A stretch of DNA of 64,000 nt from Gymnothorax reevesii (taxonomy: Eukaryota; Chordata; Actinopteri; Anguilliformes; Muraenidae): positions 113,210,219 to 113,274,218 of the forward strand of contig CM056577.1 of the NCBI GenBank assembly GCA_029721435.1, in the 5' to 3' direction. This document shows positions 1-64,000 of this stretch, piece after piece. The translations under genes and the position numbers were made by a program. The notes below the pieces were generated by a model. It was not told the DNA's origin and made no database searches. It worked only from the letters and a program-made list of their open reading frames with translations. Each line of letters opens with the position of its first letter. Within the stretch, counting starts at the first letter, position 1.

Positions 1-1040
1 GCCTTCATTCTCACGACCACCAAGACATTCACACCAACTGCAGGAGGAGGCTAGATCCCTTTGGGAATGCACAACGTGTATCCATTATTCTGAAAGAATA
101 CAAATGCGATAGTATCTTAGACTCTATCATTCGAGATTCAGTCACAAGTCACCAAACTGTCACATTGGCCCCTGAAAAGATGAGCAACTCGCGCGGTATC
201 ACAGTCGAGAAGACTCGATTTTGCTTCCGAGAGCCACCCGGTGTATTGCTAAAGAGAAAATATCAGCGATATATGAAAAGCCGCAGTACCCATCTCAGAC
301 TAATAGTGAGCATTATTCAGAAGTCTCCAAATTAAAGATTAACACCGAGACAGGAAAGACAAACGCGAAGATTCTTCTGCGCAAGCATTAATTTATAACG
401 GATACCAGCGGTGCTGTCAGAAAGCGCATCCCTTTAAACCTAGCTACTACACCTTGTCTGCAGGTGCATGGTATACAGTAGACAGATTTTGCTGTGTTGC
501 AATGTGTTCTAATATTTGTTTAAATGTTTGCTTTTCTTTTGACAGATATTGGACAGCTTGGAGCGCTTTGTCTCTGGCGACAGGAAATTCAATTCAAGAC
601 TAATGTATAGCTCCAGAATATATTTTACCATTGAGTAAGGGGAACTTTAATTAAATAGGCGCCACATTGTATCGGACATTTTAATAATATAAAGTTTATA
701 CTTGCATTTCTAAGACATTGAAATAAGAAAGCAGATAAAAAAATAAAGTGATAATGCTGCTGACGGGAAATTTCCTCAATCAATTTTTCATCATTAGTTG
801 GAGCATACTATAACGTTGCAATTTGCTTATACTTCAGGAAACTTTGCACAATGTCAGTCAGTTCAATTTCAACTGATACTTTTTATATGTAGGCTACTGC
901 CTAAGAACAATGGATACTTGACAATAAAAGCTAGGAATTTGAGCAAGCGTTTTTGTCTATGCGCCCATATTATTTGCCTTTAAATTTGAACATACATGCC
1001 TTTAATTGATAATGTCTCATTAGATAAATGTCTGAATCAA

Positions 1041-1273
1041 TCATTTTGCAACTGCGCAAAAATAGATTTAGTCATTTCGGAACTGAAAGGTCCAAGACGA
1101 CACTTCAGCACTTGGAAAATGGTAAGCTTGGCAAAAACAAGACAGTTGTGAATTTCAGCTGTGACGACTTTGTCAGTCATTTTGTTCCATTATGTAATTA
1201 TTATCAGAGAATGGTTAATTGATGGTAATATCTGGATGTGCCTAAGCAGATAACGCTTAACATAAAGAGCATT
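1041..1273 (-). pseudogene. Decayed second U4 promoter and RNA 5' end
   Basis: Three signals of the intact U4 gene recur in the same order and nearly the same spacing. First, an RNA-start-like stretch ending at 1063 reads ATTTTTGCGCAGTTGC on the minus strand, against ATCTTTGCGCAGTGGC in U4. Second, the decamer AAAATGGTAA of the PSE is 53-62 bases upstream (52-61 in the real gene). Third, GAGCATT of the distal site is 204 bases upstream (219 in the real gene) and is followed by a hairpin. The RNA body is not recognisable as U4 and no Sm site or 3' stem is seen. Equivalent start points lie at 3358, 5579, 7800, 10021, 12238, 14459, 16680, 18901, 21118, 23339, 25560, 27781, 30002, 32223, 34444, 36665, 38886, 41107, 43328, 45549, 47770, 49992, 55218, 57439, 59661 and 61882. 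Chance similarity cannot be excluded. Confidence 0.45.
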
Positions 1274-1284
1274 GCTGAAAATCC

Positions 1285-1309
1285 ACAGGGGTCCGCTTTT
1301 GACCCCTGT
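1285..1309. repeat. Perfect 9-bp inverted repeat in the spacer
   Basis: ACAGGGGTC and GACCCCTGT flank a 7-base loop. It lies just beyond the decayed second distal element at 1267, in the same relative place as the hairpin at 2039-2060 occupies beside the intact one. It is kept in nearly all units. Units 24 and 26 have one change in the left arm (CGGGGGTC). Confidence 0.6.
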
Positions 1310-1441
1310 CATTGCCCCGAGTGTTAAAGACAAGAACAATCAGTTGTGAAGGTTCGGCTGCGTGTGGAACCGTACGCGGCTCTTGGTCCATCATTTTTCA
1401 AAGACCTCTCCCAGGTTATTCTGCAATTTTTAAGGCCTGTT

Positions 1442-1589
1442 ACCAAATTGTTTCACAGATTCATTACATTTGCTATGCATTCATTTGCCTGTATTTAAAC
1501 AACCAGAAAAAATTGACCAAATTGTTTCACAGATTCGTTACATTTGCTATGCATTCATTTGCCTGTATTTAAACAACCAGAAAAAATTG
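1442..1589. repeat. 74-bp tandem duplication unique to unit 1
   Basis: Bases 1442-1515 are repeated at 1516-1589 with one visible difference (CATTACA against CGTTACA). All other units carry this segment once. It lies just left of the U4 3' end, in the presumed transcript-termination flank, and fully explains why unit 1 is 74 bp longer. Confidence 0.95.
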
Positions 1590-1625
1590 ACCAGTAGTCA
1601 CTGCTAAATCCAGAAGAACAATTCT

Positions 1626-1640: not shown

Positions 1641-1650
1641 GACATATATA

Positions 1651-1795
1651 GCAGTCCCCGAAGAGTCTGTCAAAAATTGCCAAATCTGCTGATATTTCAA
1701 GCTGATCCAGCGGGGTATTGGGTTAAGTTTTCAACCAGCAATAATCGCGCCTCGGTTACACCTCATGGGCTACGATACTGCCACTGCGCAAAGAT
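1651..1795 (-). ncRNA. U4 spliceosomal snRNA variant, copy 1
   Basis: U4 pairs with U6 in the U4/U6.U5 tri-snRNP and is displaced by Brr2 when the spliceosome is activated. The minus strand gives a 145-nt RNA that aligns without gaps to human U4 as I recall it. The 5' stem II strand (TTTGCGCAGTGGC, about 4-16) is present. A kink-turn stem-loop (20-53) keeps U31-G32-A33 and G43-A44. Next come a stem I strand at 56-62, the TTGAAAACTT linker, CCCAATACCCCGC, an Sm site AATTTTTG (118-125), and a 3' stem with a TTCG loop. Differences from human include A60G and A61G, and both strands of the central hairpin. Copy 1 has U130A, an A-A mismatch in the 3' stem. The promoter lies at 1837-1856 and 2010-2028. 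Whether this copy is expressed is unknown. Confidence 0.93.
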
Positions 1796-1836
1796 AAGTT
1801 CGATTAATTAAAAGGGAATGGCCCAGCCGAGCCCAT

Positions 1837-2028: not shown

Positions 2029-2038
2029 TAAAGGTGAG

Positions 2039-3871: not shown

Positions 3872-4016
3872 GCAGTCCCCGAAGAGACTGTCAAAAATTG
3901 CCAAATCTGCTGATATTTCAAGCTGATCCAGCGGGATATTGGGTCAAGTTTTCAACCAGCAATAATCGCGCCTCGGTTACATCTCATGGGCTACGATACT
4001 GCCACTGCGCAAAGAT
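3872..4016 (-). ncRNA. U4 snRNA variant, copy 2
   Basis: PSE at 4058-4077 and ZNF143-type site at 4231-4249 are intact. Relative to the array consensus it carries G35A, which breaks a G-C pair in the loop-side stem of the kink-turn hairpin, plus A72G and C81U in the single-stranded linker before the central hairpin. The Sm site and the fully paired 3' stem are kept. The kink-turn change could weaken 15.5K or Prp31 binding. Confidence 0.9.
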
Positions 4017-6092
4017 AAGTTCGATTAATTAAAAGGGAATGGCCCAGCCGAGCCCATCAATTTTTTCAAAATGGTAATCTTTTTTGCAAAATTTGTTAAA
4101 AATATATGTCACCTATCTAGTGACTACACAACAAAACCATGCAACCCTTAACATATGATTTTTGAAGCAATCAATTTCATTTCAAAAGTGGAACGGTAGC
4201 CTCGCCAACTATTTAAAAAAAAATTGGAAACACGGAGCATTCTGGGTAATAAAGGTGAGGGTTCCACCTTTGTGTGGAACCACCGGCGCTTTACTGCTCC
4301 CGATTTACACACCCGGGCACATTTCCTGAAAAATACTGATTCAGCAGTATGTAGGCTACTATCCAATTGCATAGTCAGTTCAAACATTGAAAATGTACTC
4401 ACTTTGGATTTGTGATGATAAGAATTCCACATTTCCGAAAAGAAATAGAAAAATCATCGGTGCTTCATTCAACTTATGACTCAAATCCCCGCACCATTCA
4501 TTATAAGGGATCAATGGCCTTCATTCTCACGACCACCAAGACATTCACACCAACTGCAGGAGGAGGCTAGATCCCTTTGGGAATGCACAACGTGTATCCA
4601 TTATTCTGAAAGAATACAAATGCGATAGTATCTTAGACTCAATCATTCGCGATTCAGTCACAAGTCACCAAACTGTCACATTGGCCCCTGAAAAGATGAG
4701 CAACTCGCGCGGTATCACAGTCGAGAAGACTCGATTTTGCTTCCGAGAGCCACCCGGTGTATTGCTAAAGAGAAAATATCAGCGATATATGAAAAGCCGC
4801 AGTACCCATCTCAGACTAATAGTGAGCATTATTCAGAAGTCTCCAAATTAAAGATTAACACCGAGACAGGAAAGACAAGCGCGAAGATTCTTCTGCGCAA
4901 GCATTAATTTATAACGGATACCAGCGGTGCTGTCAGAAAGCGCATCCCTTTAAACCTAGCTACTACACCTTGTCTGCAGGTGCATGGTATACAGTAGACA
5001 GATTTTGCTGTGTTGCAATGTGTTCTAATATTTGTTTAAATGTTTGCTTTTCTTTTGACAGATATTGTACAGCTTGGAGCGCTTTGTCTCTGGCGACAGG
5101 AAATTCAATTCAAGACAAATGTATAGCTCCAGAATATATTTTACCATTGAGTAAGGGGAACTTTAATTAAATAGGCGCCACATTGTATCGGACATTTTAA
5201 TAATATAAAGTTTATACTTGCATTTCTAAGACATTGAAATAAGTAAGCAAATAAATAAATAAAGTGATAATGCTGCTGACGGCAAATTTCCTCAATCAAT
5301 TTTTCATCATTAGTTGGAGCATACTATAACGTTGCAATTTGCTTATACTTCAGGAAACTTTGCACAATGTCAGTCAGTTCAATTTCAACTGATACTTTTT
5401 ATATGTAGGCTACTGCCTAAGAACAATGGATACTTGACAATAAAAGCTAGGAATTTGAGCAAGCGTTTTTGTCTATGCGCCCATATTATTTGCCTTTAAA
5501 TTTGAACATACATGCCTTTAATTGATAATGTCTCATTAGATAAATGTCTGAATCAATCATTTTGCAACTGCGCAAAAATAGATTTAGTCATTTCGGAACT
5601 GAAAGGTCCAAGACGACACTTCAGCACTTGGAAAATGGTAAGCTTGGCAAAAACAAGACAGTTGTGAATTTCAGCTGTGACGACTTTGTCAGTCATTTTG
5701 TTCCATTATGTAATTATTATCAGAGAATGGTTAATTGATGGTAATATCTGGATGTGCCTAAGCAGATAACGCTTAACATAAAGAGCATTGCTGAAAATCC
5801 ACAGGGGTCCGCTTTTGACCCCTGTCATTGCCCCGAGTGTTAAAGACAAGAACAATCAGTTGTGAAGGTTCGGCTGCGTGTGGAACCGTACGCGGCTCTT
5901 GGTCCATCATTTTTCAAAGACCTCTCCCAGGTTATTCTGCAATTTTTAAGGCCTGTTACCAAATTGTTTCACAGATTCATTACATTTGCTATGCATTCAT
6001 TTGCCTGTATTTAAACAACCAGAAAAAATTGATCAGTAATCACTGCTAAATCCAGAAGGACAGTTCTTCATTAATTTAATACGACATATATA

Positions 6093-6237
6093 GCTGTTCC
6101 CGAAGAGACTGTCAAAAATTGCCAAATCTTCTGATATTTCAAGCTGATTCAGCGGGGTATTGGGTTAAATTTTCAACCAGCAACAATCGCGCCTCGGTTA
6201 CACCTCATGGGCTACGATACTGCCACTGCGCAAAGAT
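6093..6237 (-). ncRNA. U4 snRNA variant, copy 3
   Basis: PSE 6279-6298, ZNF143-type site 6452-6470. Changes from consensus are A54G, C69U, G89A, C108A, G140A and U143A. The last two break two pairs in the 3' terminal stem, and C69U falls in the normally conserved linker after stem I. The Sm site is intact. By eye it is identical to copy 7, 8,880 bp away. The number of changes suggests relaxed constraint or a distinct subtype. Confidence 0.88.
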
Positions 6238-8313
6238 AAGTTCGATTAATTAAAAGGGAATGGCCCAGCCGAGCCCATCAATTTTTTCAAAATGGTAATC
6301 TTTTTTGCAAAATTTGTTAAAAATATATGTCACCTATCTAGTGACTACACAACAAAACCATGCAACCCTTAACATATGATTTTTGAAGCAATCAATTTCA
6401 TTTCAAAAGTGGAACGGTAGCCTCGCCAACTATTTAAAAAAAAATTGGAAACACGGAGCATTCTGGGTAATAAAGGTGAGGGTTCCACCTTTGTGTGGAA
6501 CCACCGGCCCTTTACTGCTCCCGATTTACACACCCGGGCACATTTCCTGAAAAATACTGATTCAGCAGTATGTAGGCTACTATCCAATTGCATAGTCAGT
6601 TCAAACATTGAAAATGTACTCACTTTGGATTTGTGATGATAAGAATTCCACATTTCCGAAAAGAAATAGAAAAATCATCGGTGCTTCATTCAACTTATGA
6701 CTCAAATCCCCGCACCATTCATTATAAGGGATCAATGGCCTTCATTCTCACGACCACCAAGACATTCACACCAACTGCAGGAGGAGGCTAGATCCCTTTG
6801 GGAATGCACAACGTGTATCCATTATTCTGAAAGAATACAAATGCGATAGTATCTTAGACTCAATCATTCGCGATTCAGTCACAAGTCACCAAACTGTCAC
6901 ATTGGCCCCTGAAAAGATGAGCAACTCGCGCGGTATCACAGTCGAGAAGACTCGATTTTGCTTCCGAGAGCCACCCGGTGTATTGCTAAAGAGAAAATAT
7001 CAGCGATATATGAAAAGCCGCAGTACCCATCTCAGACTAATAGTGAGCATTATTCAGAAGTCTCCAAATTAAAGATTAACACCGAGACAGGAAAGACAAG
7101 CGCGAAGATTCTTCTGCGCAAGCATTAATTTATAACGGATACCAGCGGTGCTGTCAGAAAGCGCATCCCTTTAAACCTAGCTACTACACCTTGTCTGCAG
7201 GTGCATGGTATACAGTAGACAGATTTTGCTGTGTTGCAATGTGTTCTAATATTTGTTTAAATGTTTGCTTTTCTTTTGACAGATATTGTACAGCTTGGAG
7301 CGCTTTGTCTCTGGCGACAGGAAATTCAATTCAAGACAAATGTATAGCTCCAGAATATATTTTACCATTGAGTAAGGGGAACTTTAATTAAATAGGCGCC
7401 ACATTGTATCGGACATTTTAATAATATAAAGTTTATACTTGCATTTCTAAGACATTGAAATAAGTAAGCAAATAAATAAATAAAGTGATAATGCTGCTGA
7501 CGGCAAATTTCCTCAATCAATTTTTCATCATTAGTTGGAGCATACTATAACGTTGCAATTTGCTTATACTTCAGGAAACTTTGCACAATGTCAGTCAGTT
7601 CAATTTCAACTGATACTTTTTATATGTAGGCTACTGCCTAAGAACAATGGATACTTGACAATAAAAGCTAGGAATTTGAGCAAGCGTTTTTGTCTATGCG
7701 CCCATATTATTTGCCTTTAAATTTGAACATACATGCCTTTAATTGATAATGTCTCATTAGATAAATGTCTGAATCAATCATTTTGCAACTGCGCAAAAAT
7801 AGATTTAGTCATTTCGGAACTGAAAGGTCCAAGACGACACTTCAGCACTTGGAAAATGGTAAGCTTGGCAAAAACAAGACAGTTGTGAATTTCAGCTGTG
7901 ACGACTTTGTCAGTCATTTTGTTCCATTATGTAATTATTATCAGAGAATGGTTAATTGACGGTAATATCTGGATGTGCCTAAGCAGATAACGCTTAACAT
8001 AAAGAGCATTGCTGAAAATCCACAGGGGTCCGCTTTTGACCCCTGTCATTGCCCCGAGTGTTAAAGACAAGAACAATCAGTTGTGAAGGTTCGGCTGCGT
8101 GTGGAACCGTACGCAGCTCTTGGTCCATCATTTTTCAAAGACCTCTCCCAGGTTATTCTGCAATTTTTAAGGCCTGTTACCAAATTGTTTCACAGATTCA
8201 TTACATTTGCTATGCATTCATTTGCCTGTATTTAAACAACCAGAAAAAATTGATCAGTAATCACTGCTAAATCCAGAAGGACAGTTCTTCATTAATTTAA
8301 TACGACATATATA

Positions 8314-8458
8314 GCAGTTCCCGAAGAGACTGTCAAAAATTGCCAAATCTTCTGATATTTCAAGCTGATTCAGCGGGGTATTGGGTTAAATTTTCAACCA
8401 GCAACAATCGCGCCTCGGTTACACCTCATGGGCTACGATACTGCCACTGCGCAAAGAT
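8314..8458 (-). ncRNA. U4 snRNA variant, copy 4
   Basis: PSE 8500-8519, ZNF143-type site 8673-8691. It belongs to the same subtype as copy 3 (A54G, C69U, G89A, C108A) and has G140A, but keeps U143, so its 3' stem is less damaged. The Sm site is intact. By eye it is identical to copy 8. Confidence 0.88.
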
Positions 8459-10534
8459 AAGTTCGATTAATTAAAAGGGAATGGCCCAGCCGAGCCCATC
8501 AATTTTTTCAAAATGGTAATCTTTTTTGCAAAATTTGTTAAAAATATATGTCACCTATCTAGTGACTACACAACAAAACCATGCAACCCTTAACATATGA
8601 TTTTTGAAGCAATCAATTTCATTTCAAAAGTGGAACGGTAGCCTCGCCAACTATTTAAAAAAAAATTGGAAACACGGAGCATTCTGGGTAATAAAGGTGA
8701 GGGTTCCACCTTTGTGTGGAACCACCGGCGCTTTACTGCTCCCGATTTACACACCCGGGCACATTACCTGAAAAATACTGATTCAGCAGTATGTAGGCTA
8801 CTATCCAATTGCATAGTCAGTTCAAACATTGAAAATGTACTCACTTTGGATTTGTGATGATAAGAATTCCACATTTCCGAAAAGAAATAGAAAAATCATC
8901 GGTGCTTCATTCAACTTATGACTCAAATCCCCGCACCATTCATTATAAGGGATCAATGGCCTTCATTCTCACGACCACCAAGACATTCACACCAACTGCA
9001 GGAGGAGGCTAGATCCCTTTGGGAATGCACAACGTGTATCCATTATTCTGAAAGAATACAAATGCGATAGTATCTTAGACTCAATCATTCGCGATTCAGT
9101 CACAAGTCACCAAACTGTCACATTGGCCCCTGAAAAGATGAGCAACTCGCGCGGTATCACAGTCGAGAAGACTCGATTTTGCTTCCGAGAGCCACCCGGT
9201 GTATTGCTAAAGAGAAAATATCAGCGATATATGAAAAGCCGCAGTACCCATCTCAGACTAATAGTGAGCATTATTCAGAAGTCTCCAAATTAAAGATTAA
9301 CACCGAGACAGGAAAGACAAGCGCGAAGATTCTGCTGCGCAAGCATTAATTTATAACGGATACCAGCGGTGCTGTCAGAAAGCGCATCCCTTTAAACCTA
9401 GCTACTACACCTTGTCTGCAGGTGCATGGTATACAGTAGACAGATTTTGCTGTGTTGCAATGTGTTCTAATATTTGTTTAAATGTTTGCTTTTCTTTTGA
9501 CAGATATTGTACAGCTTGGAGCGCTTTGTCTCTGGCGACAGGAAATTCAATTCAAGACAAATGTATAGCTCCAGAATATATTTTACCATTGAGTAAGGGG
9601 AACTTTAATTAAATAGGCGCCACATTGTATCGGACATTTTAATAATATAAAGTTTATACTTGCATTTCTAAGACATTGAAATAAGTAAGCAAATAAATAA
9701 ATAAAGTGATAATGCTGCTGACGGCAAATTTCCTCAATCAATTTTTCATCATTAGTTGGAGCATACTATAACGTTGCAATTTGCTTATACTTCAGGAAAC
9801 TTTGCACAATGTCAGTCAGTTCAATTTCAACTGATACTTTTTATATGTAGGCTACTGCCTAAGAACAATGGATACTTGACAATAAAAGCTAGGAATTTGA
9901 GCAAGCGTTTTTGTCTATGCGCCCATATTATTTGCCTTTAAATTTGAACACACATGCCTTTAATTGATAATGTCTCATTAGATAAATGTCTGAATCAATC
10001 ATTTTGCAACTGCGCAAAAATAGATTTAGTCATTTCGGAACTGAAAGGTCCAAGACGACACTTCAGCACTTGGAAAATGGTAAGCTTGGCAAAAACAAGA
10101 CAGTTGTGAATTTCAGCTGTGACGACTTTGTCAGTCATTTTGTTCCATTATGTAATTATTATCAGAGAATGGTTAATTGATGGTAATATCTGGATGTGCC
10201 TAAGCAGATAACGCTTAACATAAAGAGCATTGCTGAAAATCCACAGGGGTCCGCTTTTGACCCCTGTCATTGCCCCGAGTGTTAAAGACAAGAACAATCA
10301 GTTGTGAAGGTTCGGCTGCGTGTGGAACCGTACGCGGCTCTTGGTCCATCATTTTTCAAAGACCTCTCCCAGGTTATTCTGCAATTTTTAAGGCCTGTTA
10401 CCAAATTGTTTCACAGATTCATTACATTTGCTATGCATTCATTTGCCTGTATTTAAACAACCAGAAAAAATTGACCAGTAATTACTGCTAAATCCAGAAG
10501 GTCAATTCTTCATTAATTTAATACGACATATATA

Positions 10535-10679
10535 GCAGTCCCCGAAGAGTCTGTCAATAATTGCCAAATCTGCTGATATTTCAAGCTGATCCAGCGGGGT
10601 ATTGGGTTAAGTTTTCAACCAGCAATTATCGCGCCTCGGTTACACCTCATGGGCTACGATACTGCCACTGCGCAAAGAT
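10535..10679 (-). ncRNA. U4 snRNA variant, copy 5 (altered Sm site)
   Basis: PSE 10721-10740, ZNF143-type site 10894-10912. U122A turns the Sm site AATTTTTG into AATTATTG, interrupting the U-run that binds the Sm ring. It also has U53A at the base of the 5' stem-loop and U130A in the 3' stem. Sm assembly is needed for snRNA stability and cap hypermethylation, so this copy is a likely pseudogene. Copy 9 repeats it. Confidence 0.85.
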
Positions 10680-12751
10680 AAGTTCGATTAATTAAAAGGG
10701 AATGGCCCAGCCGAGCCCATCAATTTTTTCAAAATGGTAATCTTTTTTGCAAAATTTGTTAAAAATATATGTCACCTATCTAGTGACTACACAACAAAAC
10801 CATGCAACCCTTGACATATGATTTTTGAAGCAATCAATTTCATTTCAAAAGTGGAACGGTAGCCTCGCCAACTATTTAAAAAAAAATTGGAAACACGGAG
10901 CATTCTGGGTAATAAAGGTGAGGGTTCCACCTTTGTGTGGAACCACCGGCCCTTTACTGCTCCCGATTTACACACCCGGGCACATTTCCTGAAAAATACT
11001 GATTCAGCAGTATGTAGGCTACTATCCAATTGCATAGTCAGTTCAAACATTGAAAATGTACTCACTTTGGATTTGTGATGATAAGAATTCCACATTTCCG
11101 AAAAGAAATAGAAAAATCATCGGTGCTTCATTCAACTTATGACTCAAATCCCCGCACCATTCATTATAAGGGATCAATGGCCTTCATTCTCACGACCACC
11201 AAGACATTCACACCAACTGCAGGAGGAGGCTAGATCCCTTTGGGAATGCACAACGTGTATCCATTATTCTGAAAGAATACAAATGCGATAGTATCTTAGA
11301 CTCAATCATTCGCGATTCAGTCACAAGTCACCAAACTGTCACATTGGCCCCTGAAAAGATGAGCAACTCGCGCGGTATCACAGTCGAGAAGACTCGATTT
11401 TGCTTCCGAGAGCCACCCGGTGTATTGCTAAAGAGAAAATATCAGCGATATATGAAAAGCCGCAGTACCCATCTCAGACTAATAGTGAGCATTATTCAGA
11501 AGTCTCCAAATTAAAGATTAACACCGAGACAGGAAAGACAAGCGCGAAGATTCTTCTGCGCAAGCATTAATTTATAACGGATACCAGCGGTGCTGTCAGA
11601 AAGCGCATCCCTTTAAACCTAGCTACTACACCTTGTCTGCAGGTGCATGGTATACAGTAGACAGATTTTGCTGTGTTGCAATGTGTTCTAATATTTGTTT
11701 AAATGTTTGCTTTTCTTTTGACAGATATTGTACAGCTTGGAGCGCTTTGTCTCTGGCGACAGGAAATTCAATTCAAGACAAATGTATAGCTCCAGAATAT
11801 ATTTTACCATTGAGTAAGGGGAACTTTAATTAAATAGGCGCCACATTGTATCGGACATTTTAATAATATAAAGTTTATACTTGCATTTCTAAGACATTGA
11901 AATAAGTAAGCAAATAAATAAAGTGATAATGCTGCTGACGGCAAATTTCCTCAATCAATTTTTCATCATTAGTTGGAGCATACTATAACGTTGCAATTTG
12001 CTTATACTTCAGGAAACTTTGCACAATGTCAGTCAGTTCAATTTCAACTGATACTTTTTATATGTAGGCTACTGCCTAAGAACAATGGATACTTGACAAT
12101 AAAAGCTAGGAATTTGAGCAAGCGTTTTTGTCTATGCGCCCATATTATTTGCCTTTAAATTTGAACATACATGCCTTTAATTGATAATGTCTCATTAGAT
12201 AAATGTCTGAATCAATCATTTTGCAACTGCGCAAAAATAGATTTAGTCATTTCGGAACTGAAAGGTCCAAGACGACACTTCAGCACTTGGAAAATGGTAA
12301 GCTTGGCAAAAACAAGACAGTTGTGAATTTCAGCTGTGACGACTTTGTCAGTCATTTTGTTCCATTATGTAATTATTATCAGAGAATGGTTAATTGATGG
12401 TAATATCTGGATGTGCCTAAGCAGATAACGCTTAACATAAAGAGCATTGCTGAAAATCCACAGGGGTCCGCTTTTGACCCCTGTCATTGCCCCGAGTGTT
12501 AAAGACAAGAACAATCAGTTGTGAAGGTTCGGCTGCGTGTGGAACCGTACGCGGCTCTTGGTCCATCATTTTTCAAAGACCTCTCCCAGATTATTCTGCA
12601 ATTTTTAAGGCCTGTTACCAAATTGTTTCACAGATTCATTACATTTGCTATGCATTCATTTGCCTGTATTTAAACAACCAGAAAAAATTGACCAGTAGTC
12701 ACTGCTAAATCCAGAAGGACAATTCTTCATTAATTTAATACGACATATATA

Positions 12752-51136: not shown

Positions 51137-51156
51137 CACACTAAAAAATGCTGGGT
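51137..51156 (+). repeat. Terminal inverted repeat, left
   Basis: CACACTAAAAAATGCTGGGT. It pairs with the reverse complement of 54121-54140, with two mismatches in 20. Confidence 0.9.
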
Positions 51157-51910: not shown

Positions 51911-52030
51911 GAGTCGTTATATTTACTTGCCAGGTGTTCCGTCGATTTCTCTTACCTATAGACCGATTCAACGGTCAAAATAATAAAAGGAGAAATCGAA
52001 AGAACACCAGGCAAGTAAACCTAGCGACTC
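51911..52030. repeat. Long imperfect hairpin inside the transposon
   Basis: Arms 51911-51951 and 51990-52030 are complementary over GAGTCG/CGACTC and over a 28-base core (TACTTGCC...GATTTCTC) with three mismatches. The 38-base loop contains its own perfect small hairpin, GACCG-ATTCAA-CGGTC, at 51961-51976. The structure could be a nested small inverted-repeat element or a foldback. The RNA would form a stable stem either way round. Confidence 0.8.
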
Positions 52031-52520: not shown

Positions 52521-52524
52521 AAGG

Positions 52525-52563
52525 ACTACAGCTCCCATGATCCCACGCTACTCCATGACGTCA
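52525..52563 (+). promoter_or_regulatory. Promoter-like cluster: ZNF143-type site and CRE
   Basis: ACTACAGCTCCCATGATCCC at 52525 fits the extended ZNF143 motif of vertebrate promoters (ACTACA, then a CCCA/ATG-type core). A perfect palindromic cyclic-AMP response element, TGACGTCA, lies at 52556-52563. The pair looks like a core promoter of an ordinary vertebrate gene, about 500 bp upstream of the SAM-like frame. Activity is inference. Confidence 0.55.
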
Positions 52564-52967
52564 TACAGCTTCGTTTTTTGACTGTTCAGAAAATTACCAT
52601 GGACCTTGAAAATTACACATTCAACTACATTTTCTTCAGATTTTTTTTTTATCTTGTATGTGTGAATTTGTGATAACGTCAAGACGTCAAGCCTATATTA
52701 AAAATTGATTTCAATAAGTTATTTATAGTTGTCAAAACTATAAAAAAGGAGTGTCACATTGGCCTTTTATTATAGCCTATAAATATATTCATCCAGACTA
52801 AGACTAAGCATAAAAATGGATGGTCATCTTTGTTGACATTTGATAGCTGCTTAAATTAAACAATTTCTATTTGGGTGTAACTAAAAACTGACAACTTGCC
52901 TGACTGAGCTAGTGGGGAAAAAAAAAACCTTAACCTTGAACCCTGTTGTTGTCGCAGCCTGGCCTAT
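52564..52967. other. AT-rich transposon interior without a recognised feature
   Basis: Between the promoter-like cluster and the SAM-like frame. It is AT-rich with T-runs and A-runs and has no long open frame. It could be first-intron or 5' UTR sequence of the captured fragment. Confidence 0.45.
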
Positions 52968-53048
52968 ATGTTTCATCTGAGCATTTATGGAGATATAAAT
53001 GTAATGTTGATAACTGATTGCTGTCTCTTTGGTCTCATTTCCTACTCC

Positions 53049-53115
53049 ATGGCTGAGTACGTAAAAGAGCGACTCAGATCACGGAATCTTGAAGAACTCA
53101 TCCCGAAATTTGAAG
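53049..53115 (+). pseudogene. SAM-domain-like N-terminal exon fragment captured by the transposon
   Basis: From the ATG at 53049 the frame reads MAEYVKERLRSRNLEELIPKF, resembling the first two helices of a sterile alpha motif domain (the V..WL...LEEL...F pattern) as found at the start of some fish SAMD3-like proteins. A splice-donor-like G|GTATAG follows at 53115. A good acceptor (TTTTTTGTTCACAG) ends at 53505, but joining the two gives a stop at 53535-53537 after about 32 residues. It lacks the rest of the SAM domain, so a functional protein is unlikely. The frame is also open upstream to 52968. Captured host gene fragment is my inference. Confidence 0.5.
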
Positions 53116-53169
53116 GTATAGTAAATCTGTCTTTTGCCTCACTCTGTGTTGGGGCTCTCTGTCATTAAG

Positions 53170-53214
53170 TGTGTGCGCACATGTGTGTGCCTGTGTGTGC
53201 GTTTGTGTGCGTAC
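53170..53214 (+). repeat. GT-rich microsatellite
   Basis: A degenerate run of GTGTGTGC-type repeats in the presumed intron between the SAM-like exon and the next acceptor. Confidence 0.85.
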
Positions 53215-53505
53215 AGAAAGGACGCTGGCTGCTTCTCCATGTGTGTGAATGAGAAGAGTCAGGTGCTTTGGCTGTCATGAAAAGTGCCATAGAAATGCAG
53301 TGAATCATTATAAATATTGAACTGTTCGTGAAATGTGAGGGACACTTGAAGGCAATATTCTACTTTCCCCATGTAGTCCATGTCAAAATAACAATGATTC
53401 TGTACCACTGTAAGGAGTATTAAACTTCCCCTATTTGACTTAACATTTATTTCAGTAAAATTATGAAAGTTCCTCATTCCTGAATGGAATCTTTTTTGTT
53501 CACAG

Positions 53506-53700
53506 ATTGGAACCAACATGCCAGAGTATCTCAGTGAAGCCAATGCTGCTCATGAAGCTGTCTGCCAGAGAGGATGGCAGTCTGAGGGCCTAACGCTCCA
53601 TCAGCCCCAACCAGCAGCACCCTCTGTCCACCTCTCACTTTCTCACATTTGTATTTTTAATGATTTTGTACTGTTTAAAATATGTATCAAATAATATACA
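53506..53700 (+). pseudogene. Possible downstream exon or 3' UTR-like remnant in the transposon
   Basis: It begins just after an acceptor-like polypyrimidine tract and CAG. One frame is open from 53506 for about 60 codons (starting IGTNMPEYLSEANAAHEAV), but it is not the frame joined to the SAM-like exon under the GT-AG junction chosen. AT-rich sequence follows. No canonical AATAAA is seen. I do not recognise the peptide. Confidence 0.35.
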
Positions 53701-53784
53701 ATGTAAATAAGCAGTTTCTGTGTTGTCTGTTATTTATTTAGAACCGAATAAGAAAAGCCCATAAAAAGTATCAAATTAACAAAT

Positions 53785-53945
53785 GGGTAAGAAATGCCCA
53801 GCACTGGGTAAAGAATTTCAGAGTTAACTAAATAACATCAACCCAACAAAAGGGTAAAAATAAACCAATGCTGGGTAAGAAATGCCCAGCATTGGGTAAA
53901 GAATTTCAACATTAACTAAATAACATTGACCCAGCAAAAGGTGAA
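53785..53945 (+). repeat. Subterminal tandem duplication, right end of the transposon
   Basis: Two direct copies at a lag of 88 bp start at 53785 and 53873, both GGGTAAGAAATGCCCAGCA, and both contain GTTAACTAAATAACAT or ATTAACTAAATAACAT. More GGGT/ACCC motifs follow up to the right inverted repeat. The minus-strand open frame across 53824-54030 is only a by-product of these repeats. Confidence 0.8.
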
Positions 53946-54120
53946 GAGTGACCCACACTACTGGCTCAAAGTCACCCATTTTTGGGTGAAATAGGTTGAC
54001 CCAGTATGTTGGGTCAAAATTGTGACCCAAGTGCCTTGGGTCCTTTTGACCCAGTGCCTAGTAGGTGATATAGTGACTACCCATTGGGTCACTGAAATTA
54101 CCCAATTTGGGTGATTATTG

Positions 54121-54140
54121 ACCCAGCAGTTTTTAGAGTG
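54121..54140 (-). repeat. Terminal inverted repeat, right
   Basis: On the minus strand this reads CACTCTAAAAACTGCTGGGT, the counterpart of the left end. Confidence 0.9.
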
Positions 54141-55731: not shown

Positions 55732-55876
55732 GCAGTACCCGAAGAGACTGTCAAAAATTGCCAAATCTGCTGATATTTCAAGCTGATCCAGCGGGGTATT
55801 GGGTTAAGTTTTCAACCAGCAATAATCGCGCCTCGGTTACACCTCATGGGCTACGATACTGCCACTGCGCAAAGAT
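55732..55876 (-). ncRNA. U4 snRNA variant, copy 24
   Basis: PSE 55918-55937, ZNF143-type site 56091-56109. The only change is G140U in the 3' stem. First gene to the right of the transposon. Same sequence as copy 26. Confidence 0.92.
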
Positions 55877-57953
55877 AAGTTCGATTAATTAAAAGGGAAT
55901 GGCCCAGCCGAGCCCATCAATTTTTTCAAAATGGTAATCTTTTTTGCAAAATTTGTTAAAAATATATGTCACCTATCTAGTGACTACACAACAAAACCAT
56001 GCAACCCTTAACATATGATTTTTGAAGCAATCAATTTCATTTCAAAAGTGGAACGGTAGCCTCGCCAACTATTTAAAAAAAAATTGGAAACACGGAGCAT
56101 TCTGGGTAATAAAGGTGAGGGTTCCACCTTTGTGTGGAACCACCGGCCCTTTACTGCTCCCGATTTACACACCCGGGCACATTTCCTGAAAAATACTGAT
56201 TCAGCAGTATGTAGGCTACTATCCAATTGCATAGTCAGTTCAAACATTGAAAATGTACTCACTTTGGATTTGTGATGATAAGAATTCCACATTTCCGAAA
56301 AGAAATAGAAAAATCATCGGTGCTTCATTCAACTTATGACTCAAATCCCCGCACCATTCATTATAAGGGATCAATGGCCTTCATTCTCACGACCACCAAG
56401 ACATTCACACCAACTGCAGGAGGAGGCTAGATCCCTTTGGGAATGCACAACGTGTATCCATTATTCTGAAAGAATACAAATGCGATAGTATCTTAGACTC
56501 TATCATTCGAGATTCAGTCACAAGTCACCAAACTGTCACATTGGCCCCTGAAAAGATGAGCAACTCGCGCGGTATCACAGTCGAGAAGACTCGATTTTGC
56601 TTCCGAGAGCCACCCGGTGTATTGCTAAAGAGAAAATATCAGCGATATATGAAAAGCCGCAGTACCCATCTCAGACTAATAGTGAGCATTATTCAGAAGT
56701 CTCCAAATTAAAGGTTAACACCGAGACAGGAAAGACAAGCGCGAAGATTCTTCTGCGCAAGCATTAATTTATAACGGATACCAGCGGTGCTGTCAGAAAG
56801 CGCATCCCTTTAAACCTAGCTACTACACCTTGTCTGCAGGTGCATGGTATACAGTAGACAGATTTTGCTGTGTTGCAATGTGTTCTAATATTTGTTTAAA
56901 TGTTTGCTTTTCTTTTGACAGATATTGTACAGCTTGGAGCGCTTTGTCTCTGGCGACAGGAAATTCAATTCAAGACAAATGTATAGCTCCAGAATATATT
57001 TTACCATTGAGTAAGGGGAACTTTAATTAAATAGGCGCCACATTGTATCGGACATTTTAATAATATAAAGTTTATACTTGCATTTCTAAGACATTGAAAT
57101 AAGTAAGCAAATAAATAAATAAAGTGATAATGCTGCTGACGGCAAATTTCCTCAATCAATTTTTCATCATTAGTTGGAGCATACTATAACGTTGCAATTT
57201 GCTTATACTTCAGGAAACTTTGCACAATGTCAGTCAGTTCAATTTCAACTGATACTTTTTATATGTAGGCTACTGCCTAAGAACAATGGATACTTGACAA
57301 TAAAAGCTAGGAATTTGAGCAAGCGTTTTTGTCTATGCGCCCATATTATTTGCCTTTAAATTTGAACATACATGCCTTTAATTGATAATGTCTCATTAGA
57401 TAAGTGTCTGAATCAATCATTTTGCAACTGCGCAAAAATAGATTTAGTCATTTCGGAACTGAAAGGTCCAAGACGACACTTCAGCACTTGGAAAATGGTA
57501 AGCTTGGCAAAAACAAGACAGTTGTGAATTTCAGCTGTGACGACTTTGTCAGTCATTTTGTTCCATTATGTAATTATTATCAGAGAATGGTTAATTGATG
57601 GTAATATCTGGATGTGCCTAAGCAGATAACGCTTAACATAAAGAGCATTGCTGAAAATCCACAGGGGTCCGCTTTTGACCCCTGTCATTGCCCCGAGTGT
57701 TAAAGACAAGAACAATCAGTTGTGAAGGTTCGGCTGCGTGTGGAACCGTACGCGGCTCTTGGTCCATCATTTTTCAAGGACCTCTCCCAGGTTATTCTGC
57801 AATTTTTAAGGCCTGTTACCAAATTGTTTCACAGATTCATTACATTTGCTATGCATTCATTTACCTGTTTTTAAACAACCAGAAAAAAATTGACCAGTAG
57901 TCACTGCTAAGTCCAGAAAGACAATCCTTCATTAATTTAATACGACATATATA

Positions 57954-58098
57954 GCAGTCCCCGAAGAGACTGTCAAAAATTGCCAAATCTGCTGATATTT
58001 CAAGCTGATCCAGCGGGGTATTGGGTTAAGTTTTCAACCAGCAATAATCGCGCCTCGGTTACACCTCATGGGCTACGATACTGCCACTGCGCAAAGAT
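57954..58098 (-). ncRNA. U4 snRNA variant, copy 25 (array consensus)
   Basis: PSE 58140-58159, ZNF143-type site 58313-58331. By my reading this copy equals the array consensus at every RNA position, with intact kink-turn, Sm site and a fully paired TTCG-capped 3' stem. It is a good candidate for a functional gene. Confidence 0.94.
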
Positions 58099-60174
58099 AA
58101 GTTCGATTAATTAAAAGGGAATGGCCCAGCCGAGCCCATCAATTTTTTCAAAATGGTAATCTTTTTTGCAAAATTTGTTAAAAATATATGTCACCTATCT
58201 AGTGACTACACAACAAAACCATGCAACCCTTAACATATGATTTTTGAAGCAATCAATTTCATTTCAAAAGTGGAACGGTAGCCTCGCCAACTATTTAAAA
58301 AAAAATTGGAAACACGGAGCATTCTGGGTAATAAAGGTGAGGGTTCCACCTTTGTGTGGAACCACCGGCCCTTTACTGCTCCCGATTTACACACCCGGGC
58401 ACATTTCCTGAAAAATACTGATTCAGCAGTATGTAGGCTACTATACAATTGCATAGTCAGTTCAAACATTGAAAATGTACTCACTTTGGATTTGTGATGA
58501 TAAGAATTCCACATTTCCGAAAAGAAATAGAAAAATCATCGGTGCTTCATTCAACTTATGACTCAAATCCCCGCACCATTCATTATAAGGGATCAATGGC
58601 CTTCATTCTCACGACCACCAAGACATTCACACCAACTGCAGGAGGAGGCTAGATCCCTTTGGGAATGCACAACGTGTATCCATTATTCTGAAAGAATACA
58701 AATGCGATAGTATCTTAGTCTCAATCATTCGCGATTCAGTCACAAGTCACCAAACTGTCACATTGGCCCCTGAAAAGATGAGCAACTCGCGCGGTATCAC
58801 AGTCGAGAAGACTCGATTTTGCTTCCGAGAGCCACCCGGTGTATTGCTAAAGAGAAAATATCAGCGATATATGAAAAGCCGCAGTACCCATCTCAGACTA
58901 ATAGTGAGCATTATTCAGAAGTCTCCAAATTAAAGATTAACACCGAGACAGGAAAGACAAGCGCGAAGATTCTTCTGCGCAAGCATTAATTTATAACGGA
59001 TACCAGCGGTGCTGTCAGAAAGCGCATCCCTTTAAACCTAGCTACTACACCTTGTCTGCAGGTGCATGGTATACAGTAGACAGATTTTGCTGTGTTGCAA
59101 TGTGTTCTAATATTTGTTTAAATGTTTGCTTTTCTTTTGACAGATATTGGACAGCTTGGAGCGCTTTGTCTCTGGCGACAGGAAATTCAATTCAAGACAA
59201 ATGTATAGCTCCAGAATATATTTTACCATTGAGTAAGGGGAACTTTAATTAAATAGGCGCCACATTGTATCGGACATTTTAATAATATAAAGTTTATACT
59301 TGCATTTCTAAGACATTGAAATAAGTAAGCAAATAAATAAATAAAGTGATAATGCTGCTGACGGCAAATTTCCTCAATCAATTTTTCATCATTAGTTGGA
59401 GCATACTATAACGTTGCAATTTGCTTATACTTCAGGAAACTTTGCACAATGTCAGTCAGTTCAATTTCAACTGATACTTTTTATATGTAGGCTACTGCCT
59501 AAGAACAATGGATACTTGACAATAAAAGCTAGGAATTTGAGCAAGCGTTTTTGTCTATGCGCCCATATTATTTGCCTTTAAATTTGAACATACATGCCTT
59601 TAATTGATAATGTCTCATTAGATAAATGTCTGAATCAATCATTTTGCAACTGCGCAAAAATAGATTTAGTCATTTCGGAACTGAAAGGTCCAAGACGACA
59701 CTTCAGCACTTGGAAAATGGTAAGCTTGGCAAAAACAAGACAGTTGTGAATTTCAGGTGTGACGACTTTGTCAGTCATTTTGTTCCATTATGTAATTATT
59801 ATCAGAGAATGGTTAATTGATGGTAATATCTGGATGTGCCTAAGCAGATAACGCTTAACATAAAGAGCATTGCTGAAAATCCACGGGGGTCCGCTTTTGA
59901 CCCCTGTCATTGCCCCGAGTGTTAAAGACAAGAACAATCAGTTGTGAAGGTTCGGCTGCGTGTGGAACCGTACGCGGCTCTTGGTCCATCATTTTTCAAA
60001 GACCTCTCCCAGGTTATTCTGCAATTTTTAAGGCCTGTTACCAAATTGTTTCACAGATTCATTACATTTGCTATGCATTCATTTGCCTGTATTTAAACAA
60101 CCAGAAATAATTGACCAGTAGTCACTGCTAAATCCAAAAGGACAATTCTTCATTAATTTAATACGACATATATA

Positions 60175-60319
60175 GCAGTACCCGAAGAGACTGTCAAAAA
60201 TTGCCAAATCTGCTGATATTTCAAGCTGATCCAGCGGGGTATTGGGTTAAGTTTTCAACCAGCAATAATCGCGCCTCGGTTACACCTCATGGGCTACGAT
60301 ACTGCCACTGCGCAAAGAT
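60175..60319 (-). ncRNA. U4 snRNA variant, copy 26 (distal element broken)
   Basis: PSE 60361-60380 intact. In the ZNF143-type site (60534-60552) the base at 60548 changes CCC of the core to CAC on the minus strand, which should weaken factor binding. The RNA has G140U only, as in copy 24. The RNA may be sound but poorly transcribed. Confidence 0.91.
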
Positions 60320-62396
60320 AAGTTCGATTAATTAAAAGGGAATGGCCCAGCCGAGCCCATCAATTTTTTCAAAATGGTAATCTTTTTTGCAAAATTTGTT
60401 AAAAATATATGTCACCTATCTAGTGACTACACAACAAAACCATGCAACCCTTAACATATGATTTTTGAAGCAATCAATTTCATTTCAAAAGTGGAACGGT
60501 AGCCTCGCCAACTATTTAAAAAAAAATTGGAAACACGGAGCATTCTGTGTAATAAAGGTGAGGGTTCCACCTTTGTGTGGAACCACCGGCCCTTTACTGC
60601 TCCCGATTTACACACCCGGGCACATTTCCTGAAAAATACTGATTCAGCAGTATGTAGGCTACTATCCAATTGCATAGTCAGTTCAAACATTGAAAATGTA
60701 CTCACTTTGGATTTGTGATGATAAGAATTCCACATTTCCGAAAAGAAATAGAAAAATCATCGGTGCTTCATTCAACTTATGACTCAAATCCCCGCACCAT
60801 TCATTATAAGGGATCAATGGCCTTCATTCTCACGACCACCAAGACATTCACACCAACTGCAGGAGGAGGCTAGATCCCTTTGGGAATGCACAACGTGTAT
60901 CCATTATTCTGAAAGAATACAAATGCGATAGTATCTTAGACTCAATCATTCGCGATTCAGTCACAAGTCACCAAACTGTCACATTGGCCCCTGAAAAGAT
61001 GAGCAACTCGCGCGGTATCACAGTCGAGAAGACTCGATTTTGCTTCCGAGAGCCACCCGGTGTATTGCTAAAGAGAAAATATCAGCGATATATGAAAAGC
61101 CGCAGTACCCATCTCAGACTAATAGTGAGCATTATTCAGAAGTCTCCAAATTAAAGGTTAACACCGAGACAGGAAAGACAAGCGCGAAGATTCTTCTGCG
61201 CAAGCATTAATTTATAACGGATACCAGCGGTGCTGTCAGAAAGCGCATCCCTTTAAACCTAGCTACTACACCTTGTCTGCAGGTGCATGGTATACAGTAG
61301 ACAGATTTTGCTGTGTTGCAATGTGTTCTAATATTTGTTTAAATGTTTGCTTTTCTTTTGACAGATATTGTACAGCTTGGAGCGCTTTGTCTCTGGCGAC
61401 AGGAAATTCAATTCAAGACAAATGTATAGCTCCAGAATATATTTTACCATTGAGTAAGGGGAACTTTAATTAAATAGGCGCCACATTGTATCGGACATTT
61501 TAATAATATAAAGTTTATACTTGCATTTCTAAGACATTGAAATAAGTAAGCAAATAAATAAATAAAGTGATAATGCTGCTGACGGCAAATTTCCTCAATC
61601 AATTTTTCATCATTAGTTGGAGCATACTATAACGTTGCAATTTGCTTATACTTCAGGAAACTTTGCACAATGTCAGTCAGTTCAATTTCAACTGATACTT
61701 TTTATATGTAGGCTACTGCCTAAGAACAATGGATACTTGACAATAAAAGCTAGGAATTTGAGCAAGCGTTTTTGTCTATGCGCCCATATTATTTGCCTTT
61801 AAATTTGAACATACATGCCTTTAATTGATAATGTCTCATTAGATAAGTGTCTGAATCAATCATTTTGCAACTGCGCAAAAATAGATTTAGTCATTTCGGA
61901 ACTGAAAGGTCCAAGACGACACTTCAGCACTTGGAAAATGGTAAGCTTGGCAAAAACAAGACAGTTGTGAATTTCAGCTGTGACGACTTTGTCAGTCATT
62001 TTGTTCCATTATGTAATTATTATCAGAGAATGGTTAATTGATGGTAATATCTGGATGTGCCTAAGCAGATAACGCTTAACATAAAGAGCATTGCTGAAAA
62101 TCCACAGGGGTCCGCTTTTGACCCCTGTCATTGCCCCGAGTGTTAAAGACAAGAACAATCAGTTGTGAAGGTTCGGCTGCGTGTGGAACCGTACGCGGCT
62201 CTTGGTCCATCATTTTTCAAGGACCTCTCCCAGGTTATTCTGCAATTTTTAAGGCCTGTTACCAAATTGTTTCACAGATTCATTACATTTGCTATGCATT
62301 CATTTACCTGTTTTTAAACAACCAGAAAAAAATTGACCAGTAGTCACTGCTAAGTCCAGAAAGACAATCCTTCATTAATTTAATACGACATATATA

Positions 62397-62541
62397 GCAG
62401 TCCCCGAAGAGACTGTCAAAAATTGCCAAATCTGCTGATATTTCAAGCTGATCCAGCGGGGTATTGGGTTAAGTTTTCAACCAGCAATAATCGCGCCTCG
62501 GTTACACCTCATGGGCTACGATACTGCCACTGCGCAAAGAT
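62397..62541 (-). ncRNA. U4 snRNA variant, copy 27 (array consensus)
   Basis: PSE 62583-62602, ZNF143-type site 62756-62774. Matches the array consensus throughout, like copy 25, its partner at a 4,443-bp lag. Last complete gene in the window; the next unit is cut before its U4. Confidence 0.94.
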
Positions 62542-64000
62542 AAGTTCGATTAATTAAAAGGGAATGGCCCAGCCGAGCCCATCAATTTTTTCAAAATGGT
62601 AATCTTTTTTGCAAAATTTGTTAAAAATATATGTCACCTATCTAGTGACTACACAACAAAACCATGCAACCCTTAACATATGATTTTTGAAGCAATCAAT
62701 TTCATTTCAAAAGTGGAACGGTAGCCTCGCCAACTATTTAAAAAAAAATTGGAAACACGGAGCATTCTGGGTAATAAAGGTGAGGGTTCCACCTTTGTGT
62801 GGAACCACCGGCCCTTTACTGCTCCCGATTTACACACCCGGGCACATTTCCTGAAAAATACTGATTCAGCAGTATGTAGGCTACTATACAATTGCATAGT
62901 CAGTTCAAACATTGAAAATGTACTCACTTTGGATTTGTGATGATAAGAATTCCACATTTCCGAAAAGAAATAGAAAAATCATCGGTGCTTCATTCAACTT
63001 ATGACTCAAATCCCCGCACCATTCATTATAAGGGATCAATGGCCTTCATTCTCACGACCACCAAGACATTCACACCAACTGCAGGAGGAGGCTAGATCCC
63101 TTTGGGAATGCACAACGTGTATCCATTATTCTGAAAGAATACAAATGCGATAGTATCTTAGTCTCAATCATTCGCGATTCAGTCACAAGTCACCAAACTG
63201 TCACATTGGCCCCTGAAAAGATGAGCAACTCGCGCGGTATCACAGTCGAGAAGACTCGATTTTGCTTCCGAGAGCCACCCGGTGTATTGCTAAAGAGAAA
63301 ATATCAGCGATATATGAAAAGCCGCAGTACCCATCTCAGACTAATAGTGAGCATTATTCAGAAGTCTCCAAATTAAAGATTAACACCGAGACAGGAAAGA
63401 CAAACGCGAAGATTCTTCTGCGCAAGCATTAATTTATAACGGATACCAGCGGTGCTGTCAGAAAGCGCATCCCTTTAAACCTAGCTACTACACCTTGTCT
63501 GCAGGTGCATGGTATACAGTAGACAGATTTTGCTGTGTTGCAATGTGTTCTAATATTTGTTTAAATGTTTGCTTTTCTTTTGACAGATATTGGACAGCTT
63601 GGAGCGCTTTGTCTCTGGCGACAGGAAATTCAATTCAAGACAAATGTATAGCTCCAGAATATATTTTACCATTGAGTAAGGGGAACTTTAATTAAATAGG
63701 CGCCACATTGTATCGGACATTTTAATAATATAAAGTTTATACTTGCATTTCTAAGACATTGAAATAAGTAAGCAAATAAATAAATAAAGTGATAATGCTG
63801 CTGACGGCAAATTTCCTCAATCAATTTTTCATCATTAGTTGGAGCATACTATAACGTTGCAATTTGCTTATACTTCAGGAAACTTTGCACAATGTCAGTC
63901 AGTTCAATTTCAACTGATACTTTTTATATGTAGGCTACTGCCTAAGAACAATGGATACTTGACAATAAAAGCTAGGAATTTGAGCAAGCGTTTTTGTCTA

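What the first reader, a model, noticed from the sequence alone, without database searches (positions are those of the whole stretch)
1..64000. A 27-copy tandem cluster of a divergent U4 snRNA, with complete Pol II snRNA promoters
The unit looks like anonymous satellite DNA, but the minus strand of every unit encodes a gap-free 145-nt U4-type RNA with PSE and ZNF143-type elements at canonical distances. The RNA is roughly 80% identical to human U4 by my count, against a human sequence recalled from memory. A normal vertebrate U4 would be expected to be far closer. A dedicated array of variant U4 could serve a stage with heavy snRNA demand, such as the oocyte; maternal and somatic snRNA types are known in zebrafish. 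The stage role is inference.
Basis: partly seen in the sequence, partly recalled or inferred. Interest (0 to 1): 0.88.

Follow-up and report, generated by a model that had tools for sequence, protein, structure and literature searches.

The report
Hypermutating tandem array of U4 genes
This stretch holds 27 side-by-side copies of a gene for U4, an RNA used in splicing, and the copies differ from one another about seven times more inside the gene and just after it than in the DNA between the genes, likely because being transcribed in the germline mutates them.

Summary
Rfam finds 27 full-length U4 genes, all on the minus strand (103.5-116.3 bits; gathering score 46), in 2217-2222-bp units; one spacer carries a 3,004-bp transposon-like insert. 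The consensus RNA is gap-free and 121 of 145 identical to human U4 as I recall it. A ZNF143-like site at -231 and a PSE-like element at -61 are exact in 26 of 27 genes each; a 3' box is not recognisable beyond chance.

Of 119 substitution events among 27 units, 64 fall in -5..+325 and 55 in the rest of the 2,221-bp unit. The densest interval, chosen without annotation, is -9..+326 (0 of 2000 permutations), starting at the predicted 5' end. RNA and 3' flank vary alike, and Rfam-conserved positions are not spared. Ten of 27 copies carry changes in the K-turn hairpin or the Sm site.

Best reading: likely transcription-associated mutagenesis in the germline, with copies exchanging sequence. It is reported for human snRNA genes; a tandem array displays it with a spacer control. 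The oocyte role is untested. One result weakens the mutation reading: closely related pairs show a smaller excess (9 of 32 differences).

The parts
1..64000 (-). tandem array of 2.22-kb units, 27 U4 genes seen, running past both window ends
1651..1795 (-). U4 gene 1
3872..4016 (-). U4 gene 2; G35>A in the K-turn hairpin
6093..6237 (-). U4 gene 3
8314..8458 (-). U4 gene 4
10535..10679 (-). U4 gene 5; Sm U-tract interrupted (T122>A)
12752..12896 (-). U4 gene 6
14973..15117 (-). U4 gene 7
17194..17338 (-). U4 gene 8
19415..19559 (-). U4 gene 9; Sm U-tract interrupted (T122>A)
21632..21776 (-). U4 gene 10
23853..23997 (-). U4 gene 11
26074..26218 (-). U4 gene 12; its PSE-like element carries one change
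28295..28439 (-). U4 gene 13; Sm U-tract interrupted (T121>G)
30516..30660 (-). U4 gene 14
32737..32881 (-). U4 gene 15; K-turn U31>G
34958..35102 (-). U4 gene 16; Sm U-tract interrupted (T121>G)
37179..37323 (-). U4 gene 17
39400..39544 (-). U4 gene 18; K-turn U31>G
41621..41765 (-). U4 gene 19
43842..43986 (-). U4 gene 20; G35>C in the K-turn hairpin
46063..46207 (-). U4 gene 21
48285..48429 (-). U4 gene 22; K-turn U31>G
50505..50649 (-). U4 gene 23; K-turn U31>G
55732..55876 (-). U4 gene 24
57954..58098 (-). U4 gene 25, equal to the array consensus
60175..60319 (-). U4 gene 26; its ZNF143-like site carries one change
62397..62541 (-). U4 gene 27, equal to the array consensus
57774..58103 (-). 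hypervariable zone (-5..+325), shown for gene 25; the same zone applies to the other genes
58145..58159 (-). PSE-like element TTACCATTTTGAAAA at -61 of gene 25 (exact in 26 of 27 genes)
   Evidence: PSE consensus recalled
58319..58329 (-). ZNF143-like site ACCCAGAATGC at -231 of gene 25 (exact in 26 of 27 genes)
   Evidence: ZNF143 consensus recalled
1442..1593 (.). 74-bp tandem duplication in the 3' flank of gene 1, inside the hypervariable zone
51137..54140 (.). 3,004-bp insertion with TA target-site duplication and imperfect inverted ends, about 490 bp upstream of gene 23

Best explanation
This is a tandem array of at least 27 U4 snRNA genes whose stretch from the predicted start site to about +325 differs among copies some seven times more than the spacer, likely because RNA polymerase II transcription in the germline mutates it (predicted transcription-associated mutagenesis), while exchange among copies would keep a working consensus. 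Steps shown: U4 identity by covariance model, unit structure, promoter-like elements, and the position, size and 5' edge of the hypervariable zone. Steps inferred: that the genes are transcribed, that this happens in the germline, that Pol II runs to about +325, and that transcription is the mutagen. Also inferred: because each copy is one of many, damaged copies (10 of 27 with changes in the K-turn hairpin or the Sm site) are tolerated until unequal exchange removes or spreads them, and such turnover could have carried the array consensus away from canonical U4 where the RNA tolerates change.
For: Position: in 27 gene-centred 2221-bp units, 64 of 119 substitution events lie in -5..+325; the densest interval, found without annotation, is -9..+326 (66 events), with 0 of 2000 permutations reaching its score; bootstrap 2.5-97.5% ranges are -54..+71 for the start and +205..+365 for the end. 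Direction: 10 events in -325..-1 against 64 in +1..+325, p = 9e-11. It does not stop with the RNA: 32 events in 145 nt of RNA and 34 in the next 219 nt, 26 units. Mean pairwise difference per site is 0.0272 inside and 0.0037 outside. The excess is alike in singletons (7.1x), doubletons (5.7x) and commoner variants (7.4x). With 18 of 27 genes kept after dropping nine duplicate-like ones: 63 events inside, 53 outside. Four sites carry three alleles, three of them in the zone, as recurrent mutation would give. Simulation, 15 runs per setting: seven-fold mutation in the spot gives 6.7-6.8x with flat flanks; barring conversion over the spot gives 1.7-2.7x with shoulders. [quoted passage not shown] passages of PMC11338827 link RNU4-2 variant density to open chromatin and very high expression; passages of PMC3874203 put the human U1 and U2 transcription units at about 1 kb.
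Against: No expression data. Among 11 closely related gene pairs listed, only 9 of 32 differences lie in the zone (28%; the whole set gives 54%, a uniform rate 15%), a smaller excess than the mutation model predicts; for nine of these pairs (the block-duplicate partners) it is 3 of 12. The pairs overlap and some were chosen for sharing zone alleles, which biases the count down. Distances in the zone hardly follow distances in the spacer (Mantel r 0.17 and 0.20, p about 0.1), so the zone does not share one genealogy with its flanks; exchange among copies explains this, but so could import from outside. Indels lean towards the zone only weakly, 3 inside against 2 outside (p = 0.026; counted by hand; one of the two outside is the transposon insertion, seen as its target-site duplication). 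T>A against A>T (13 to 3, p = 0.012) is one of six strand tests and does not survive correction. A 3' box was not recognised beyond chance.
Confidence: 0.66

Rival explanations
1. Gene conversion from other U4 loci outside the array brings variants into the RNA and its 3' flank, so the zone is diverse by import, not by local mutation.
For: Zone and spacer distances are almost uncoupled, and some zone haplotypes have several linked alleles, such as the five RNA changes shared by genes 3, 4, 7 and 8. The smaller zone excess in closely related pairs fits.
Against: At the 24 positions where the consensus differs from recalled human U4, 7 vary, and 3 of these 7 changes give the human base, near the one third expected by chance; half of the zone events are singletons (32 of 64); the donors would have to share some 180 nt of 3' flank and be as diverse themselves.
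Confidence: 0.15
2. The variants are assembly or polishing errors caused by reads from other U4 copies being placed on this array, and part of the copy number is an assembly product.
For: An exact 10,296-bp self-match at offset 8,880 could be an assembly duplicate.
Against: The zone runs about 180 nt past the RNA; almost all events in it are substitutions, not homopolymer indels; several zone variants are shared by neighbouring block copies and by promoter-side variants.
Confidence: 0.09
3. Mutation is uniform, but conversion between copies is blocked over the transcribed stretch, so old variants persist there.
For: Transcription or R-loops could in principle hinder exchange (recalled idea, no call).
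Against: Simulated blocking gives 1.7-2.7x with raised shoulders on both sides, where 6.6x in event density with an edge near +1 is seen (three settings, 15 runs each; observed values). The settings tried are few.
Confidence: 0.06
4. Selection for diverse U4 RNAs keeps different copies different.
For: The RNA varies strongly and changes fall on conserved positions too.
Against: The 219 nt after the RNA hold as many events (34) as the RNA (32), and K-turn and Sm-site changes are predicted to break the RNA (recalled biochemistry).
Confidence: 0.03

Closest known systems
Tandem snRNA gene arrays: human U2 (PMC9138887, start of abstract in the listing: 'tandemly repeated U2 snRNA genes'), Xenopus U1 and U2 (recalled), U4 sites mapped by FISH in a characid fish (PMC8056886, passages)
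   Same: many copies of one Pol II snRNA gene in one orientation with near-identical units
   Different: here the gene and its 3' flank vary far more than the spacer; I recall the known arrays as described for their uniformity, and did not test them
Hypermutable human snRNA genes (PMC13083260 and PMC11338827, passages; Seplyarskiy 2023 and Thornlow 2018 are cited there and not held)
   Same: raised variation tied to active snRNA genes, up to tenfold
   Different: those are population and de novo data on dispersed human genes; here the contrast is read among copies of one array, with an edge near the predicted start and a spacer control
Embryonic or maternal snRNA types (PMC4291461, passages: U4 isoform switching in Xenopus and chicken)
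   Same: more than one U4 sequence class is known in vertebrates, used at different stages
   Different: no expression known here; [quoted passage not shown]

Membership tests
U4 snRNA (RF00015) | covariance-model match over the whole model above the gathering score | tested here: met
   27 of 27 at 103.5-116.3 bits, model 1-138
U4 snRNA (RF00015) | pairing with U6 by stem I and stem II | tested here: met
   consensus nt 1-66 cofolds with a recalled human U6 segment into both helices, -41.1 kcal/mol (recalled human U4 -38.7); the host's own U6 is unknown
U4 snRNA (RF00015) | K-turn hairpin and Sm site | tested here: met
   consensus intact; U31 lost in 4 of 27, G35 changed in 2 of 27, Sm U-tract interrupted in 4 of 27
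U4 snRNA (RF00015) | TMG-capped RNA found in U4/U6 particles | not testable with these tools
   needs RNA
Vertebrate-type Pol II snRNA promoter | PSE near -55 with no TATA box near -30 | tested here: met
   PSE-like element at -61 in 26 of 27; no TATA box seen by eye in the printed -45..-1; PSE consensus recalled
Vertebrate-type Pol II snRNA promoter | distal element near -220 with a ZNF143 site and often an octamer | tested here: inconclusive
   ZNF143-like site at -231 in 26 of 27; no exact octamer (four spellings) within 400 bp in 0 of 27
Vertebrate-type Pol II snRNA promoter | 3' box within about 20 nt of the RNA | tested here: inconclusive
   best match has 4 mismatches at +156; 92% of control stretches do as well
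Transcription-associated mutagenesis locus | excess variation that begins at the start site and fades downstream | tested here: met
Transcription-associated mutagenesis locus | strand-asymmetric spectrum | tested here: inconclusive
   T>A 13 against A>T 3, p = 0.012, one of six tests
Transcription-associated mutagenesis locus | transcription in the germline | not testable with these tools
   no expression data
Maternal or oocyte-type snRNA genes | expression in oocyte or early embryo rather than soma | not testable with these tools
   no expression data; a zebrafish preprint sought by a recalled DOI is not held

The most novel reading that the evidence does not exclude
The array is a germline-active U4 source that mutates itself by being transcribed: hypermutation from +1 to about +325 plus exchange among copies keeps a standing pool of variant and broken U4 genes and has driven the array's U4 away from the canonical sequence, a mutational route by which embryonic and somatic snRNA types diverge.
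Probability: 0.27. Interest if true: 0.82.

Novelty: new variant of a known kind. Interest (0 to 1): 0.6.

Why it matters
Gene arrays are expected to show conserved genes and drifting spacers; this one shows the reverse, with an edge near the predicted start site. If the reading is right, any long-read assembly with a tandem snRNA array is a ready record of transcription-driven mutation in the germline: many parallel copies, each with its own spacer as control, in species with no trio data. The footprint could then tell active arrays from dead ones without RNA, and it bears on why human U4 (RNU4-2) is such a frequent site of new disease mutations.

Tried and rejected
Rejected: (a) chance clustering of variants: 0 of 2000 permutations reach the observed score of 51.7, maximum 11.9, and 120 simulations of uniform mutation with unequal crossing-over and conversion (four settings, 30 runs each) reach at most 15.2. 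(b) Blocked conversion over the zone: three settings. (c) Import of canonical U4 alleles: against recalled human U4 only. (d) Another RNA gene in the spacer: none at E up to 1 in the two units scanned. (e) A 3' box at +156: no better than chance. (f) Protein-coding content near the insertion: no Pfam match at E up to 0.1 for 5 of the 6 open stretches listed; three of the five lie in the insertion and two in unit DNA beside it.

Led nowhere: one scan of viral contigs for a U4 core word found 0; the window's own genome was never searched because the tool did not complete; the zebrafish preprint sought by a recalled DOI is not held, and the search for maternal-type snRNAs listed one paper, a review on rRNA fragments; two papers on tRNA and Pol III mutability are not held. 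A result against me: closely related pairs show a smaller zone excess. The host is unknown; I suspect a teleost from the look of the spacer and the insertion, which is a recalled impression and was not tested.

Corrected on checking: one of the two indels counted outside the zone is the transposon insertion itself, seen as its target-site duplication; promoter-side positions printed as -332, -218 and -123 are -333, -219 and -124 when the base before the RNA is -1. Neither changes the odds.
Full report
What is there. The Rfam scan of both strands gives 27 matches above the gathering score, all U4 (RF00015), all on the minus strand, each covering the whole model at 103.5-116.3 bits. The genes lie 2217-2222 bp apart. 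One interval is 5227 bp because a 3,004-bp element sits in the spacer at 51137..54140, about 490 bp upstream of gene 23. The window begins and ends inside spacer, so the array goes on in both directions. A permissive scan of two units finds no other RNA family.

The RNA. The consensus is 145 nt and aligns without gaps to human U4 as I recall it, 121 of 145 identical; of the 24 differences, 13 lie at positions 87-112, in the 3' stem-loop region. The K-turn hairpin, the Sm site and a terminal hairpin closed by UUCG are present in the consensus. Cofolding of nt 1-66 with a recalled human U6 segment forms both intermolecular helices, -41.1 kcal/mol against -38.7 for recalled human U4. So the consensus looks like a working U4. 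Individual copies often do not: U31 of the K-turn is G in genes 15, 18, 22 and 23, the Sm U-tract is interrupted in genes 5, 9, 13 and 16, and G35 is changed in genes 2 and 20, in all 10 of 27. That these would impair function is inferred from recalled U4 biochemistry.

The promoter. ACCCAGAATGC, a ZNF143-like site, begins at -231 in 26 of 27 genes, and TTACCATTTTGAAAA, a PSE-like element, at -61 in 26 of 27; an exact octamer (four spellings) was found within 400 bp of none of the 27. I see no TATA box in the printed stretch between the PSE-like element and the start. This is the layout of a Pol II snRNA gene. The 3' box could not be shown: the best match has four mismatches and 92% of control stretches do as well.

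The unexpected pattern. Among 26 complete units, diversity is highest in the first few hundred bases from the RNA start and low elsewhere. With 27 units centred on the genes there are 119 substitution events: 64 in -5..+325 and 55 in the remaining 1.89 kb. A scan for the densest interval, which knows nothing of the annotation, returns -9..+326; 0 of 2000 permutations reach its score, and bootstrap ranges are -54..+71 for the start and +205..+365 for the end. The 325 bp upstream hold 10 events and the 325 bp downstream 64 (p = 9e-11). Density climbs from 10 per 100 bp in the first 30 nt to 25-30 at +61..+200 and falls to background after +350. In the earlier alignment of 26 units the RNA has 32 events in 145 nt and the following 219 nt have 34. 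Positions that Rfam marks as conserved vary as often as the others, 11 of 54 against 17 of 87. Thus the RNA is not protected copy by copy; the zone ignores the end of the RNA and respects its beginning.

Why mutation driven by transcription is the best reading. The zone begins where transcription would begin, extends past the RNA as Pol II would, and is absent upstream, so neither the RNA's function nor the promoter's explains it. In passages of PMC13083260 active human snRNA genes are called hypermutable, up to tenfold; passages of PMC11338827 say that high transcription correlates with mutation rate and that RNU4-2 has high variant density; passages of PMC3874203 put the human U1 and U2 transcription units at about 1 kb. 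Seven-fold mutation in simulated arrays reproduces a 6.7-6.8x spot with flat flanks, while barring conversion over the spot yields 1.7-2.7x with shoulders (15 runs per setting). Since differences between array copies are inherited, the transcription would have to take place in the germline; the data do not say which sex or stage. [quoted passage not shown] it is at most a hint towards the female germline.

What speaks against it. In 11 closely related gene pairs only 9 of 32 differences lie in the zone, less than the 54% of the whole set, though more than the 15% of a uniform rate; for the nine block-duplicate pairs among them it is 3 of 12. The pairs overlap and some were picked by shared zone alleles. 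Zone and spacer distances are nearly uncorrelated (Mantel r 0.17 and 0.20; 0.43 between the two spacer halves), and without genes 20 and 21 and the duplicates the correlations turn negative. Pairs with only 1-2 spacer differences still average 9.8 zone differences (38 of 351 pairs). Exchange among copies would reshuffle zone and spacer in this way, and within the zone 15 of 496 pairs of shared variants are incompatible with a single tree; but import from an unseen donor locus would look similar. Import of canonical U4 is not favoured, since 3 of the 7 changes at the 24 diverged positions give the human base, near chance. The hint of strand asymmetry (T>A 13, A>T 3, p = 0.012) is one of six tests.

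Array dynamics. A stretch of 10,296 bp (4289..14584) recurs exactly at offset 8,880, so genes 3-6 and 7-10 are one recent block duplication or an assembly duplicate; genes 13-15 and 16-18, and genes 24-25 and 26-27, are imperfect block copies. Dropping nine duplicate-like genes leaves 63 events inside and 53 outside. Gene 1 carries a 74-bp tandem duplication at about +202, in the zone.

U4 identity, array and promoter are supported. The stage role stays open. PMC4291461 passages report U4 isoform switching in Xenopus and chicken development, which makes an early-stage role plausible; [quoted passage not shown] U4 sites have been mapped on fish chromosomes (PMC8056886 passages). The host could not be identified and its genome could not be searched.

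Verdict. The array itself is a new member of a known kind. The reversed pattern of variation makes it a new variant: a known mutational process would be displayed with unusual clarity and with an internal control. I hold the U4 array as shown and the mutational mechanism as likely, not proven.

Noticed in passing
51137..54140: 3,004-bp insertion with TA target-site duplication, imperfect 24-bp inverted ends (21 of 24) and TGGGT/ACCCA-rich ends; no Pfam domain in the three open stretches of it that were scanned: looks like a non-autonomous DNA transposon.
   Followed up: partly
4289..14584 and 13169..23464: 10,296-bp exact self-match at offset 8,880: a very recent four-unit block duplication or an assembly duplicate.
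   Followed up: partly
1442..1593: 74-bp tandem duplication in the 3' flank of gene 1, within the hypervariable zone.
   Followed up: partly
genes 15, 18, 22, 23 (RNA position 31): K-turn U31>G is shared by four genes that also share promoter-side variants at -333, -219 and -124, so a haplotype predicted to bind 15.5K poorly has spread in the array.
   Followed up: partly
59644..59660, minus strand: Short U4-like word TTTTTGCGCAGTTGCAA in the spacer, similar to the U4 5' end (read); probably chance.
   Followed up: no
hypervariable zone of the 27 genes: GC-to-AT changes are raised about 11-fold and AT-to-GC about five-fold over the spacer, so the spectrum differs from the spacer's and may point to the kind of damage.
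   Followed up: no
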